The position numbers and the translations under genes are program-made. The notes beneath the pieces are model-generated. The model worked only from the letters and a program-made list of their open reading frames with translations, searched no databases and was not told the origin of the DNA. DNA of 64,000 nt from Hyphomicrobiales bacterium (GTDB lineage Bacteria; Pseudomonadota; Alphaproteobacteria; Rhizobiales; Rhizobiaceae), in assembly GCA_900470195.1 (NCBI GenBank), contig UEIJ01000004.1, positions 124,001 through 188,000 of the forward strand. The letters are read 5' to 3'. Shown piece after piece: positions 10,746-26,310 of this stretch. How positions within the stretch are numbered: the first letter of the stretch is position 1; the number at the start of each line of letters is the position of its first letter.

Positions 10746-11318
10746 TTACATGCCTTCCGGTCCGCGGTTCATGGCTGCAACACCAGTACGGCAGGTCTCA
10801 ACCAGACCGAGCGGCTTCATGATCGAGATGAACTGGTCGATCTTGGCAGGCTTTCCGGTGATTTCCAGAATGAAATGATCTGTCGTCGCGTCAACCACCT
10901 TGGCCTTGAACGCGTCGGCAAGCCGTAGCGTCTCCGCCCTCGCCTCGCCTTTGCCGGCGACCTTCACTAAGGCCAGTTCACGCTCCACCGGACGGTCATG
11001 ACCAAGTTCCGAGGCGCGGTGACTGAGATCGACAACGCGGTGAACCGGCACAATGCGGGCCAACTGGTGACGTATCTGGTCGAGCACATGCGGCGTGCCG
11101 CGTGTCACGATTGTGATGCGCGACAGGTGCTTTTCATGCTCGGTTTCCGAAACCGTCAGGCTTTCGATATTGTAGCCACGGCCAGAGAAAAGACCGATCA
11201 CGCGGGCAAGAACACCCGGTTCGTTGTCAACGAGGACGGCAAGCGTGTGCGTTTCCGGCATTTGCGTTTCGGCAGCGATAAAATAGGCCGATCCGGAAGC
11301 TAGGTTTTGTGCATTCAT
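10746..11318 (-). CDS. ilvH: Acetolactate synthase small (regulatory) subunit
   Basis: A 190-residue regulatory subunit that binds valine and confers feedback inhibition on the catalytic subunit. The N-terminal ACT domain reads HTLAVLVDNEPGVLARVIGLF followed by GRGYNIESLTV (split here), and the C-terminal ACT-like half has TDHFILEITGKPAKIDQFI. The ATG at 11318 has GGAGG about 10 bases upstream and leaves a 16-base gap after ilvI; longer frames would overlap ilvI. Expressed together with ilvI under the leader attenuator. Confidence 0.97.
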   Translation of the reverse strand: MNAQNLASGSAYFIAAETQMPETHTLAVLVDNEPGVLARVIGLFSGRGYNIESLTVSETEHEKHLSRITIVTRGTPHVLDQIRHQLARIVPVHRVVDLSHRASELGHDRPVERELALVKVAGKGEARAETLRLADAFKAKVVDATTDHFILEITGKPAKIDQFISIMKPLGLVETCRTGVAAMNRGPEGM

Positions 11319-11334
11319 GATTTTTTCCTCCGGA

Positions 11335-13158
11335 TCAGACGAGCGCGCGGCCCTTGGCGTCGATGGCATTGGCAACGGCTTCGTCAGTGGCTTCGTCGGG
11401 CAACAGCATTTCATTATGCGCCTTGCCCGACGGGATCATCGGGAAACAATTGGCGAGATTTGCCACGCGGCAGTCGAAGATGACCGGCTTGTCGATATCG
11501 ATCATTTCCTGAATGGCGGCATCGAGATCAACCGGCTTTTCGCAACGGATACCGTGCGCTCCATAGGCTTCCGCCAGTTTCACGAAATCCGGCATCGCCT
11601 CCGTATAGGAGTGCGACAGACGGTTACCATGCAGAAGCTGCTGCCACTGACGCACCATCCCCATATACTGGTTGTTCAGGATGAAGATTTTGATCGGCGC
11701 ATTATGCTGGATCGCAGCCGACATTTCCTGAATGCACATCTGGATCGATGCATCGCCTGCAATATCGATTACCAGCGCATCAGGATGCGCGATTTGCACA
11801 CCGAGCGCCGCTGGCAGGCCATAACCCATGGTGCCGAGACCGCCCGAGGTCAGCCAGCGGTTCGGCTCCTCAAAACCATAGAACTGCGCAGCCCACATCT
11901 GATGCTGCCCAACCTCAGTGGTGATGTAGGTCTTGCGATCCTTCGTCAGTTCATAGAGCCGCTGAATTGCATATTGCGGCATGATGACATCCCGGTTCGG
12001 CGCATAGGCCAGCGAATTGCGGGAGCGCCAGCGGTCGATCTGCTCCCACCAAGAACCGATTGCCTGCTTTTCCGGCTTCCTTTCAGAAGCGCGGAACTGA
12101 CGAACGATATCTTCCAGAACGTGGGCAACATCGCCGATGATCGGCACGTCGACGCGAACGTTCTTGTTGATCGAAGACGGATCGATATCGATGTGGATTT
12201 TCTTCGAGTTCGGGGAAAATGCATTCAGGCGTCCGGTGATGCGGTCGTCGAAGCGGGCACCGACGCACAGCATCACATCGCAATCATGCATGGTCATGTT
12301 GGCTTCATAGGTGCCGTGCATACCGAGCATTCCGAGCCAGTTCTTGCCGGAAGCCGGATAAGCGCCCAGTCCCATAAGCGTGGATGTGATCGGGAAATTG
12401 CTGATCTCGACCAGCTCGCGCAGCAGACGGGAAGCTGCCGGGCCGGAATTGATCACGCCGCCGCCGGAATAAATAACGGGCTTCTTCGCATTGACGAGCA
12501 GACGAACGGCTTCCGAAATTGCCTGCGCATTGCCGTCGAGAACGGGACGGTAGCTGGTGCGCGGCGCGGTTTCCGGGGGCGTATAAATGCCCTTGGCGAA
12601 CTGGATATCCTTCGGAATGTCGACCACCACGGGACCGGGACGACCGGTGGAAGCGACATGAAAGGCTTCGTGCAGGATGCGCGCCAGATCGTTGACGTCC
12701 TTCACCAGCCAGTTGTGCTTTGTGCAGGGGCGCGTAATGCCGATCGTATCGCATTCCTGAAATGCATCGGAACCGATCAGGGTCGTCGGAACCTGACCCG
12801 AAATGCAAACCAGAGGAATGGAGTCCATCAGGGCATCCTGAAGCGGTGTGACTGCGTTGGTCGCACCCGGACCGGATGTGACAAGCATCACCCCAACCTT
12901 GCCGGTCGAACGCGCATAGCCTTCCGCCGCATGCCCGGCGCCCTGCTCGTGACGCACCAGAACGTGCTGAACCTTGTCCTGCTGGAAAAGCTCGTCATAG
13001 ATCGGCAGCACAGCGCCGCCGGGATAACCGAAGATGCTCTCGACGCCCTGGTCGATCAAAGCCTGAATGACCATTTCCGCGCCTGTCATTTCGCGCGGAT
13101 TGCTTGCTTCCTGCGTTTCTGCGGCGTTTGCGTCCGCCTCACGTTTACCTGCAGTCAT
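11335..13158 (-). CDS. ilvI: Acetolactate synthase large (catalytic) subunit
   Basis: A 607-residue thiamine-diphosphate enzyme that makes 2-acetolactate or 2-aceto-2-hydroxybutyrate, the first shared step of valine, leucine and isoleucine synthesis. It has the N-terminal TPP-binding domain with the catalytic Glu in VRHEQGAGHAAEGYARSTG, the central FAD-binding domain, and the C-terminal TPP domain with the metal motif around IDIAGDASIQMC. The first 30 residues are a charged, poorly conserved extension. GAAGAGA precedes the ATG. An Ile/Leu/Val leader peptide and attenuator lie immediately upstream. Confidence 0.97.
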   Translation of the reverse strand: MTAGKREADANAAETQEASNPREMTGAEMVIQALIDQGVESIFGYPGGAVLPIYDELFQQDKVQHVLVRHEQGAGHAAEGYARSTGKVGVMLVTSGPGATNAVTPLQDALMDSIPLVCISGQVPTTLIGSDAFQECDTIGITRPCTKHNWLVKDVNDLARILHEAFHVASTGRPGPVVVDIPKDIQFAKGIYTPPETAPRTSYRPVLDGNAQAISEAVRLLVNAKKPVIYSGGGVINSGPAASRLLRELVEISNFPITSTLMGLGAYPASGKNWLGMLGMHGTYEANMTMHDCDVMLCVGARFDDRITGRLNAFSPNSKKIHIDIDPSSINKNVRVDVPIIGDVAHVLEDIVRQFRASERKPEKQAIGSWWEQIDRWRSRNSLAYAPNRDVIMPQYAIQRLYELTKDRKTYITTEVGQHQMWAAQFYGFEEPNRWLTSGGLGTMGYGLPAALGVQIAHPDALVIDIAGDASIQMCIQEMSAAIQHNAPIKIFILNNQYMGMVRQWQQLLHGNRLSHSYTEAMPDFVKLAEAYGAHGIRCEKPVDLDAAIQEMIDIDKPVIFDCRVANLANCFPMIPSGKAHNEMLLPDEATDEAVANAIDAKGRALV

Positions 13159-13199
13159 TGTTCTCTTCCCGTCTGCATTTCATTTCTGATTTGGATAAT

Positions 13200-13222
13200 A
13201 AAAAAGGCCCCCGAGGGAGCCT
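13200..13222 (-). terminator. Attenuator terminator in the ilvI leader
   Basis: On the minus strand AGGCTCC / GGGGCCT-type arms (7-8 bp including one G-U pair) are followed by a six-T run, lying between the leader peptide stop and ilvI. This is the classic intrinsic terminator of an amino-acid attenuator. Upstream, GCGCATGGG pairs with CCCATGCGC around an inner GGATGG / CCATCC hairpin, which would be the pause or alternative structures. Confidence 0.82.
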
Positions 13223-13254
13223 GTCTTTCGCGCATGGGAGCTTTCGCCGGATGG

Positions 13255-13308
13255 TTACACCATCCTGCCCATGCGCGCCCGTACCACAAGAATAATAATC
13301 GTGTTCAT
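13255..13308 (-). CDS. ilvIH operon leader peptide
   Basis: A 17-codon frame encoding MNTIIILVVRARMGRMV and ending in TAA. It contains three consecutive Ile codons followed by Leu-Val-Val, i.e. the three end products of the pathway that ilvI begins. Ribosome stalling at these codons when charged tRNAs are scarce would alter folding of the following hairpins and prevent termination. There is no Shine-Dalgarno sequence in front of the ATG; a promoter-like pair placed 8 bases upstream suggests that the mRNA starts at or near the A of the AUG. A GTG in frame at 13320 is an alternative start. Confidence 0.88.
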   Translation of the reverse strand: MNTIIILVVRARMGRMV

Positions 13309-13316
13309 GGTGGCGG

Positions 13317-13345
13317 ACACTAATAGCCGGATTTGGCGTCGTCAA
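13317..13345 (-). promoter_or_regulatory. Putative promoter of the ilvIH leader transcript
   Basis: On the minus strand TTGACG (13345-13340) is separated by 17 bases from TAGTGT (13322-13317). The -35 box is close to consensus, the -10 box weak. Initiation about 8 bases downstream would fall on the leader ATG at 13308, giving a leaderless leader peptide. Confidence 0.5.
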
Positions 13346-25740: not shown

Positions 25741-25931
25741 ATATCCACTCTCCTTCGATTGGGGAATAAATACCCCGTTTCAGCTCACGGAATCCGGCTT
25801 CATCGAAATTTCGCTCGCCGCCCCCGATATATTGGTAGGATTGACCAGCGAAAGCAGACTGTCAATGAAAAATGAACGGGAACCGCAGGCCCGGGAATAT
25901 CAGCAAAACCCGTTAAAAACTGCGTCCCCTC

Positions 25932-25960
25932 TTCCAATCAGGTTCAACCGCGCCTATATA
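25932..25960 (+). promoter_or_regulatory. Putative ssrA promoter
   Basis: TTCCAA (25932-25937) and TATATA (25955-25960) are separated by 17 bases and would start transcription near 25967, just at the first hairpin of the tmRNA precursor. The -35 match is only partial. Confidence 0.4.
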
Positions 25961-25965
25961 CGGCG

Positions 25966-26292
25966 TGTCAGCGCAAGCTGACTATGGTGATAAACGGACG
26001 GTGTAATAAACCCATTGGACCCGGGGGCGGTACCCGGCGCCTCCACCAGAATACAGATCGGCTAGTGGTTTGTATTGTGGCGGGGGCGAAACAGGATCGA
26101 CAAGGGTGTAAAGATCGCTCTTTTACTCGGCATGATACCACCGTTATCGGGTCAATTGAGTAGTTGCAAATGACAACAAAGCTCAGGGTTACGCTCTCGC
26201 TGCCTAATGGCGGTGCGGGAAACCCACTCTAAAGCCCTTAGGGTTAGCCCCTTAAGGCGGGGTTCGGAGGCACCTGGCAACAGAAGCCTCCA
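25966..26292 (+). ncRNA. ssrA: Transfer-messenger RNA, circularly permuted two-piece form
   Basis: The 3' acceptor half comes first: a GTCAGC-GCAA-GCTGAC hairpin (25967-25982), a T-arm CCGGG/CCCGG, the acceptor strand CGCCTCC and ACCA (CCA at 26046-26048). After an intervening loop to be removed (26049-26081) comes the 5' acceptor strand GGGGGCG (26082-26088), which pairs fully with CGCCTCC including a third-position G-U pair, the alanine identity element. The tag frame at 26166-26207 encodes ANDNKAQGYALAA then TAA. A final GGAGGC / GCCTCC helix closes the coding piece. It rescues stalled ribosomes and tags proteins for ClpXP. The 5' end is inferred; the exact 3' end is uncertain by several bases. 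Confidence 0.95.
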
Positions 26293-26310
26293 CTTTCCCT
26301 TTCCAACAGA

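What the first reader, a model, noticed from the sequence alone, without database searches (positions are those of the whole stretch)
13200..13345. Ile-Leu-Val leader peptide and attenuator before ilvIH, apparently leaderless
Seen: a 17-codon frame MNTIIILVVRARMGRMV just upstream of ilvI, followed by competing hairpins and a terminator with six Ts. No Shine-Dalgarno sequence precedes its ATG, while a TTGACG-N17-TAGTGT promoter-like pair would start the RNA at about the A of AUG. Established: stalling at codons for the pathway end products controls ilv operons in other bacteria, and a transcript starting at the AUG has been described for the rhizobial trp leader. Inference: this operon uses attenuation, initiated on a leaderless message.
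Basis: partly seen in the sequence, partly recalled or inferred. Interest (0 to 1): 0.72.

Follow-up and report, generated by a model that had tools for sequence, protein, structure and literature searches.

The report
Leaderless Ile-Leu-Val leader before ilvI
A 109-base leader in front of a gene for making isoleucine, leucine and valine looks like an amino-acid-sensing transcription brake whose RNA starts right at the start codon of a tiny Ile/Leu/Val peptide; the kind of switch is known, but the usual competing RNA structure is not found here, so how the brake would be released is open.

Summary
The 17-codon frame, promoter-like pair, missing Shine-Dalgarno and six-T terminator are present. 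The stretch is a known Rfam family, RF02502 (Atu_C8, "Rhizobiales sRNA", 116.5 bits). Of 197 RF02502 loci read, 195 precede ilvI and 189 carry an Ile/Leu/Val run, in codons ilvI avoids (Val GTA 59% against 2%). Leaderless start: supported by comparison, not measured; the promoter sits at one fixed place before the ATG in 102 of 119 loci of the window's family and in 79 of 79 leaders found at 80 ilvI loci chosen by protein. Elsewhere in the order 46 of 78 loci look Shine-Dalgarno-led, so initiation seems to have switched. Not supported: "competing hairpins". Hairpin 1 and terminator coexist; a stalled ribosome gains the terminator arm no partner (5 kcal/mol or more in 0 of 197). Controls: 7.3-13.5 in five E. 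coli leaders; best value over all positions 6.9-17.8 in 26 rhizobial trpL; 5.1 or more in 18 RMG-type ilvI leaders of another family, where hairpin 1 overlaps the terminator. Best reading: ribosome-sensing attenuation, hairpin 1 the likely antiterminator by unknown means. The kind is published (S. meliloti prediction, Caulobacter, Corynebacterium).

The parts
13340..13345 (-). -35 element TTGACG of the leader promoter (predicted)
   Evidence: Sequence; conserved at -37..-32 from the leader ATG in 91 loci of the family with a single candidate ATG.
13317..13322 (-). -10 element TAGTGT, 8 bases before the ATG (predicted)
   Evidence: Sequence; in a scan of -25..-6, 115 of 119 family loci score 7 or more and 109 of these have the -10 at -16..-12.
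13255..13308 (-). Leader peptide ORF MNTIIILVVRARMGRMV*, predicted to begin at the first base of the RNA
   Evidence: counterpart with an ILV run in 189 of 197 loci and 79 of 80 protein-chosen loci.
13282..13299 (-). Control codons ATT ATT ATT CTT GTG GTA (Ile-Ile-Ile-Leu-Val-Val)
   Evidence: Sequence; codon bias of such runs against ilvI of the same loci.
13229..13277 (-). Hairpin 1, enclosing the leader stop codon; its foot lies 7 bases past the first base of the last control codon
   Evidence: covariation; stop codon enclosed in 197 of 197.
13200..13222 (-). Intrinsic terminator: 7-bp stem, 4-base loop, six Ts
   Evidence: T run of 6 or more in 195 of 197 loci, which were chosen by the RNA model.
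13189..13309 (-). Rfam RF02502 (Atu_C8) match: the terminated leader RNA
   Evidence: 116.5 bits, gathering score 50.
11335..13158 (-). ilvI, acetolactate synthase large subunit
   Evidence: NCBIfam PRK09107 1236.7 bits, TIGR00118 802 bits.
10746..11321 (-). ilvH, acetolactate synthase small subunit (start taken at 11321; a longer frame begins at 11414)
   Evidence: NCBIfam PRK11895 226.1 bits, TIGR00119 172.1 bits.

Best explanation
A leaderless transcription attenuator of ilvIH that senses branched-chain amino acids. RNA polymerase starts at the A of the leader AUG (inferred). A ribosome loads on the 5' AUG and reads Ile-Ile-Ile-Leu-Val-Val. With these amino acids plentiful it runs into hairpin 1 and reaches the stop codon inside it, hairpin 1 is held open, and the terminator ends transcription, leaving the about 109-nt RNA that Rfam lists as Atu_C8. 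When they are scarce it stalls on the control codons with hairpin 1 just outside its entry channel, so hairpin 1 stays folded and lets polymerase pass. Shown by comparison: peptide, codon bias, hairpin 1, terminator, promoter position. Inferred: starvation response. Inferred and weakest: hairpin 1 as antiterminator, because here it shares no bases with the terminator; exclusion would have to be steric or kinetic.
For: 195 of 197 loci precede ilvI; ILV run in 189 of 197, other frames at most 3 in 5; control codons Val GTA 59% against 2%, Leu CTT 44% against 8%, Ile ATT 69% against 17% in ilvI, and permuted runs ILVV/LILVV/LIVV/IILVV; covarying hairpin 1 and terminator; hairpin foot 7-8 bases past the first base of the last control codon in 113 of 197; the five window-family genomes without the RNA have no IlvI over the cut-off; promoter at the leaderless position in 102 of 119 and 79 of 79; 11 of 17 trpL promoters scoring 7 or more lie at -14..-12; RMG-type ilvI leaders of family f74 have a like layout with hairpin 1 overlapping the terminator; Corynebacterium ilvBNC and M. 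tuberculosis ilvB1 are reported to let an antiterminator form when the ribosome pauses on the control codons.
Against: No thermodynamic competition in this lineage: 0 of 197 loci pass the stall test, terminator probability 0.92-0.97 on average at every ribosome position. Hairpin 1 ends 0-9 bases before the terminator in 197 of 197, but 25 trpL leaders show gaps of 0-11, so short spacing is no evidence for steric exclusion. In f74 the hairpin's GCGC foot lies 11, not 7-8, bases past the last control codon in 16 of 18. 84 of 197 loci have the foot at another distance than 7-8. No expression, 5'-end or starvation data were seen for any member.
Confidence: 0.55

Rival explanations
1. Dual-function small RNA and peptide without termination control: the terminator is unconditional or constant, the released RNA (Atu_C8) or peptide acts in trans as reported for rnTrpL/peTrpL, and a ribosome stalled at the 5' end only stabilises the RNA or the read-through mRNA.
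For: No switch in terminator formation, nor in ilvI start-site accessibility (130 loci), with ribosome position; Rfam files the family as an sRNA; trans roles reported for the trp counterpart (abstract; passage).
Against: Rare and permuted Ile/Leu/Val codons in front of an Ile/Leu/Val gene point to sensing; the f74 counterpart has a termination switch by the same computation.
Confidence: 0.22
2. Classical three-structure attenuator: a stalled ribosome frees a segment that pairs with the terminator's 5' arm.
For: The other parts of an attenuator are present; an ilvIH element was predicted for S. meliloti.
Against: Stall test medians 0.1 and 0.0 kcal/mol in 119 and 78 loci, none at 5 or more; with the stall definition used for the controls, means 0.66 and 1.21, against 7.3-13.5 for five E. 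coli leaders and a mean of 10.8 for 26 rhizobial trpL. Best 5-bp helix near the arm occurs in 27% of 119 and 19% of 70 sequences (f11 left out of the 70). Best values over all ribosome positions reach 12.7 in single loci, but the mean profile has no peak at the stall.
Confidence: 0.12
3. The leader is translated from a longer RNA that starts upstream, so it is not leaderless.
For: 46 of 78 loci of other families are classed SD-led, with the promoter, where one scores 9 or more, further up in 21 of 23 SD-class loci; 6 of 119 loci of the window's own family are also classed SD-led; no 5' end was measured here.
Against: In the window's family the promoter is at the leaderless position in 102 of 119 and SD-like sites (dG -5 or better) are no commoner than in shuffles, 16 of 119 against 18%.
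Confidence: 0.07

Closest known systems
Rfam RF02502 Atu_C8 (Rhizobiales sRNA)
   Same: The very same RNA: 116.5 bits over the full model. In many loci of the family (offset -2) the model begins on the third base of the leader ATG.
   Different: Rfam's name and type, as shown by the tool, do not say that it is the ilvI leader, codes a peptide, or is leaderless.
ilvIH element of Sinorhizobium meliloti (Vitreschak et al. 2004, seen only as cited in PMC2573895, passages)
   Same: Predicted cis-regulatory element before ilvIH in the same family.
   Different: The 2004 paper is not held, so its structure model could not be compared; the citing passages seen say nothing of leaderless initiation.
ilvBNC attenuator of Corynebacterium glutamicum (PMC11857589, passages)
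   Same: RNA start one nucleotide from the leader start codon; control codons CUU and GUA; antiterminator and terminator hairpins side by side.
   Different: There the antiterminator and terminator overlap at a GCC triplet and a third hairpin is proposed; here hairpin 1 and terminator share no base.
trpL/rnTrpL of S. meliloti (PMC10117765, PMC7298713, passages)
   Same: Leaderless leader peptide, terminated sRNA; similar promoter-to-ATG distance in relatives (11 of 17 scoring loci).
   Different: trpL leaders have a strong antiterminator (best values 6.9-17.8 kcal/mol, 26 loci).
Caulobacter ilvBN/ilvIH leader (PMC4117421, passages)
   Same: Alphaproteobacterial Ile/Val leader CDS described as attenuating this operon.
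   Different: The passages state that stalling blocks the terminator; its structure was not compared here.

Membership tests
Rfam RF02502 (Atu_C8) | Covariance-model score above the gathering score of 50 bits | tested here: met
   116.5 bits, full model.
Ribosome-mediated attenuator of amino-acid operons | Short ORF rich in codons for the operon's end products, upstream of the operon | tested here: met
Ribosome-mediated attenuator of amino-acid operons | Intrinsic terminator between leader ORF and first gene | tested here: met
   conserved. Termination itself was not measured.
Ribosome-mediated attenuator of amino-acid operons | Antiterminator mutually exclusive with the terminator, favoured when the ribosome stalls | tested here: not met
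   Window best value 1.7 kcal/mol over all positions; 0 of 197 relatives at 5 or more at the stall, controls positive.
Ribosome-mediated attenuator of amino-acid operons | Read-through rises on starvation for the amino acid | not testable with these tools
   Needs an experiment.
Leaderless mRNA | Transcript 5' end at the start codon | not testable with these tools
   No 5' end measured; indirect support from promoter position.
Leaderless mRNA | AUG start, no Shine-Dalgarno | tested here: met
   in the protein-chosen set 1 of 79 leaders has an SD-like site of -5 or better.
Corynebacterium-type ilv attenuator (antiterminator overlapping terminator) | Antiterminator hairpin and terminator share bases at their junction | tested here: not met
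   No shared base in the window; a stall-linked switch, with overlap read from the sequences, in 18 of 18 RMG-type f74 leaders.

The most novel reading that the evidence does not exclude
Across much of an order of Alphaproteobacteria the ilvI leader controls termination without mutually exclusive RNA structures: hairpin 1, kept folded by a ribosome stalled just short of it, disables a terminator with which it shares no base, by acting on RNA polymerase or its exit channel. Along the way translation of the same leader peptide switched repeatedly between Shine-Dalgarno-led and leaderless initiation.
Probability: 0.3. Interest if true: 0.75.

Novelty: new variant of a known kind. Interest (0 to 1): 0.45.

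Why it matters
It gives an Rfam sRNA family whose entry, as shown here, names no role an address and a likely function (ilvI leader), suggests that one leader peptide has moved between SD-led and leaderless translation within one order, and exposes a family of attenuator-like leaders without the antiterminator on which the textbook model rests. A tractable relative (S. meliloti) makes the missing step directly testable.

Tried and rejected
Competing hairpins: tested by folding with ribosome masks, by the free-energy cost of keeping the terminator arm free, and by column-pair scans; rejected for the window. The scans used 119 f1 and 70 of the 78 other loci (f11 left out).

Translational control of the ilvI start site: accessibility did not change with ribosome position (74 + 56 loci where the start could be placed near enough).

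A motif after the T run pairing with bases behind the control codons: little excess over shuffles; dropped.

Steric exclusion from short spacing: gaps of 0-9 bases looked telling until 25 trpL controls showed 0-11; kept only as a hypothesis.

Counting and selection. The 197 loci were chosen by RF02502, mostly one per genus but up to seven, so conservation of hairpins and terminator in them is partly by construction; the 80 loci (the best 80 of 576) were chosen by IlvI protein and show the same (79 of 80 by the filter; L397, the miss, visibly carries a shorter ILV run). The leader ATG was chosen as the one with the best ILV run or best run, then best promoter, which favours the result somewhat. 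In one search the leaderless class is defined by the promoter position, so its 84 of 87 is partly circular; I use instead. Initiation classes: f1 102 leaderless, 6 SD, 11 unclassified; the 24 other families 17, 46 and 15. The tree is a FastTree of partial IlvI (192 rows, 76 weak forks); 9 changes is its parsimony count over classified rows. Of 52 SD-class loci only 23 have a promoter scoring 9 or more. In f35, which I read later, only 6 of 27 scored leaders have an SD of -5 or better: these are neither clearly SD-led nor leaderless.

Other samples. f74: 24 of 26 loci examined, 22 passed the leader filter, 17 of them are RMG-type and were tested with L235; the other five gave stall values of 0.0-3.6. 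f35: element at E 0.01 in 33 of 41 genomes; 27 of 30 fetched loci could be scored, 3 show an overlap-type switch. Of 20 order genomes without an RF02502 match, 19 have IlvI over the cut-off and 4 show the element with model R1; in 19 ilvI loci of these genomes the leader filter found 3 leaders, one of them (L311, same genome as L272) overlap-type. So the element is common but not universal in the order. Of 30 ilvI loci from a class-wide sample the filter passed the window's own, L268 and L262 (the last looks like chance), 27 had none. Model R1 found the element in 5 of 385 genomes of the class, four of the order and G518. trpL: 26 of 30 loci gave a terminator; 17 of 30 promoters scored 7 or more, 11 of these at -14..-12.

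Literature: all 10 searches used. ilvI + leader peptide + attenuat + Rhizobi: 0 papers; 'Atu_C8': one paper, on rice, irrelevant; SMc01431: one paper. Word searches of the main text gave no 'ilv' in PMC10117765, PMC3616915, PMC3738593, PMC10469942, PMC9751625, PMC7143759, PMC2873474, PMC7298713. 'Not in print' is claimed only for those words in that library. The source paper of Atu_C8 (recalled as Wilms et al. 2012) was not held under the DOI tried, nor was Vitreschak 2004.

Full report
What is there. On the minus strand, 13308-13255 codes MNTIIILVVRARMGRMV*. Upstream lie TTGACG, a 17-base spacer, TAGTGT and an 8-base CCGCCACC that ends at the A of ATG; downstream lie a 49-base hairpin (13277-13229) that encloses the stop codon and a 7-bp terminator with six Ts (13222-13200), then ilvI at 13158 and ilvH. 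The whole leader matches Rfam RF02502, Atu_C8, 'Rhizobiales sRNA', with 116.5 bits. One copy was found in the genome.

Conservation. RF02502 is found in 116 of 121 genomes of the window's family (the tool's GTDB grouping), 112 over the gathering score. The five without it are genomes of at most 2.0 Mb, and none of them has IlvI over the NCBIfam cut-off. In the order it is found in 161 of 297 genomes, 49 over the gathering score; in a class-wide sample in 6 of 385, of which G000 and G200 belong to the order (the sample holds few genomes of the order). I read 197 loci (119 of the family, called f1, 78 of 24 other families of the order). ilvI lies downstream in sense in 195 of 197. A frame with at least four Ile/Leu/Val in five residues begins near the 5' end in 189 of 197; other frames reach at most three. 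A set chosen by IlvI protein instead (80 named loci, identities 73-92%) gives the leader in 79 of 80 by the filter. In the two same-genus genomes compared the 109 leader bases are identical; some further named relatives differ slightly in the peptide.

Sensing. The run is permuted (ILVV, LILVV, LIVV, IILVV and others), which fits selection for codons rather than for one peptide. Its codons are those that ilvI of the same loci avoids: Val GTA 59% against 2%, Leu CTT 44% against 8% and CTG 3% against 55%, Ile ATT 69% against 17%. This is what a charged-tRNA sensor might use; selection on the RNA's bases cannot be excluded.

Leaderless or not. Anchored on the leader ATG, 91 f1 loci with a single candidate ATG show TTGACG at -37..-32 and TA at -14,-13, and no SD. 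A match of 8 of 12 or better at that place occurs in 102 of 119 f1 loci (shuffles 2.2%) and in 17 of 78 others (1.2%); SD-like sites of -5 kcal/mol or better in 16 of 119 f1 (shuffles 18%) and 43 of 78 others (22%). In a freer scan (-25..-6), 115 of 119 f1 loci score 7 or more and 109 of these have the -10 at -16..-12. Of 23 SD-class loci with a promoter scoring 9 or more (of 52), 21 have the -10 at -44..-31, a 5' UTR of roughly 20-30 bases. So the leader looks leaderless in f1, in 7 of 8 loci of f23 and 5 of 7 of f28, and SD-led in 46 of the 78 loci outside f1; 6 f1 loci are classed SD, 26 of 197 are unclassified, and the parsimony count on an IlvI tree is 9 changes. In f35, read later, only 6 of 27 leaders have a good SD. 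The leader trpL, whose RNA starts with AUG in S. meliloti (PMC10117765 and PMC7298713, passages), shows a similar though weaker promoter placement in the window's genome and relatives (11 of 17 scoring loci at -14..-12). In many f1 loci the Rfam model starts at the third base of the ATG (offset -2), which suggests that the RNA on which the family was built begins about there (inference). S. meliloti has 171 mapped leaderless starts (PMC3616915, passages), so leaderless initiation is ordinary in this group.

Structure. Covariation supports hairpin 1 and the terminator. They do not compete. With the RNA transcribed up to the terminator loop and the ribosome masking up to any position, letting the terminator's 5' arm pair upstream gains at most 1.7 kcal/mol in the window. 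With the ribosome at the last control codon the median gain is 0.1 (119 f1 loci) and 0.0 (78 others), none at 5 or more. Best values over all positions have medians of 3.5 and 5.9 and reach 12.7 in single loci, but the mean profile has no peak at the stall. With one stall definition for all (middle control codon): five E. coli leaders (thrL, leuL, ilvL, hisL, trpL) 7.3-13.5, 26 rhizobial trpL mean 10.8, ilvI leaders means 0.66 and 1.21. Rhizobial trpL best values are 6.9-17.8. In the protein-chosen set none of 79 reaches 5 at the stall, and one exceeds its stop value by 3 or more. In family f35 of the order 3 of 27 show a switch.

A telling relative. In family f74, outside the order, 17 of 24 ilvI loci examined have a leader ending in RMG(R/L/W/P) with the same GCGCATGGG hairpin; there, as I read the sequences, the hairpin's 3' strand runs into the terminator's 5' arm. 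All 17, and one more (L235), gain 5.1 kcal/mol or more at the stall and lose more than half of it with the ribosome at the stop codon (medians 6.85 and 1.45). This resembles the arrangement described for Corynebacterium ilvBNC, where the RNA starts one nucleotide from the leader's start codon, the control codons are CUU and GUA, and antiterminator and terminator overlap at a GCC (PMC11857589, passages), and, in outline, the one for M. tuberculosis ilvB1 (PMC13236596, passages). In such leaders a paused ribosome lets the antiterminator hairpin form, and a ribosome at the stop codon prevents it. In the order studied here the foot of hairpin 1 lies 7-8 bases past the first base of the last control codon in 113 of 197 loci, about where a ribosome's leading edge is expected (recalled), so a stalled ribosome should likewise leave hairpin 1 folded; in f74 the GCGC foot lies 11 bases past it in 16 of 18. 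What is missing in the window is the shared bases.

Reading. I take the element for a leaderless, Ile/Leu/Val-sensing attenuator in which hairpin 1 plays the antiterminator, with exclusion of the terminator by a means that RNA folding does not show. Short spacing (0-9 bases) would fit a steric effect, but trpL leaders have gaps just as short (0-11 in 25). The rival that the terminator is constant and the RNA or peptide acts in trans remains open.

What is known. An ilvIH element in S. meliloti is listed as a known cis element by PMC2573895 (passages), citing a 2004 prediction that I could not read. Caulobacter's ilv leader is described as an attenuator (PMC4117421, passages). In the listings and passages I saw, no paper ties Atu_C8 to ilvI or treats the rhizobial ilvI leader as leaderless, in a library that lacks most subscription journals. 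Hence: new variant of a known kind.

Noticed in passing
L040, L041, L233 (leader at about 1500-1620 of each): Three copies of the leader (peptides MMIAIDMVVVGRRMGTAA, MMENGMIVVGARMGMAE, MRMMQVSVVVGRRMGKAA) stand before a Bcr/CflA-family efflux MFS transporter (TIGR00710 over cut-off) instead of ilvI, in two f6 genomes and in one genome outside the order: the module seems to have moved.
   Followed up: partly
L187/L188 and L195/L196 (family f11): Two leader copies about 2.7 kb apart on the same contig, each before an ilvI-like gene.
   Followed up: no
G029, G063, G304, G398 (e.g. L012 and L137): Genomes with two RF02502 copies on different contigs; of the copies that were read, each has ilvI downstream.
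   Followed up: no
window 13192-13199 and the loci: After the T run an ATTGCC-like motif recurs: ATTGCC in 61 of 197 loci, RTTRCC in 90 of 197; the window has ATTATCC. In other families it could pair with the terminator's 3' arm (44% against 29% in shuffles). Meaning unknown.
   Followed up: partly
window 25928-26294: Alphaproteobacterial tmRNA gene, 312.6 bits, also hit by the permuted tmRNA model.
   Followed up: no
L272, L346, L351 (family f35): Overlap-type ilvI attenuators inside the order, unlike the other 24 scored loci of that family; both designs occur in one family.
   Followed up: partly
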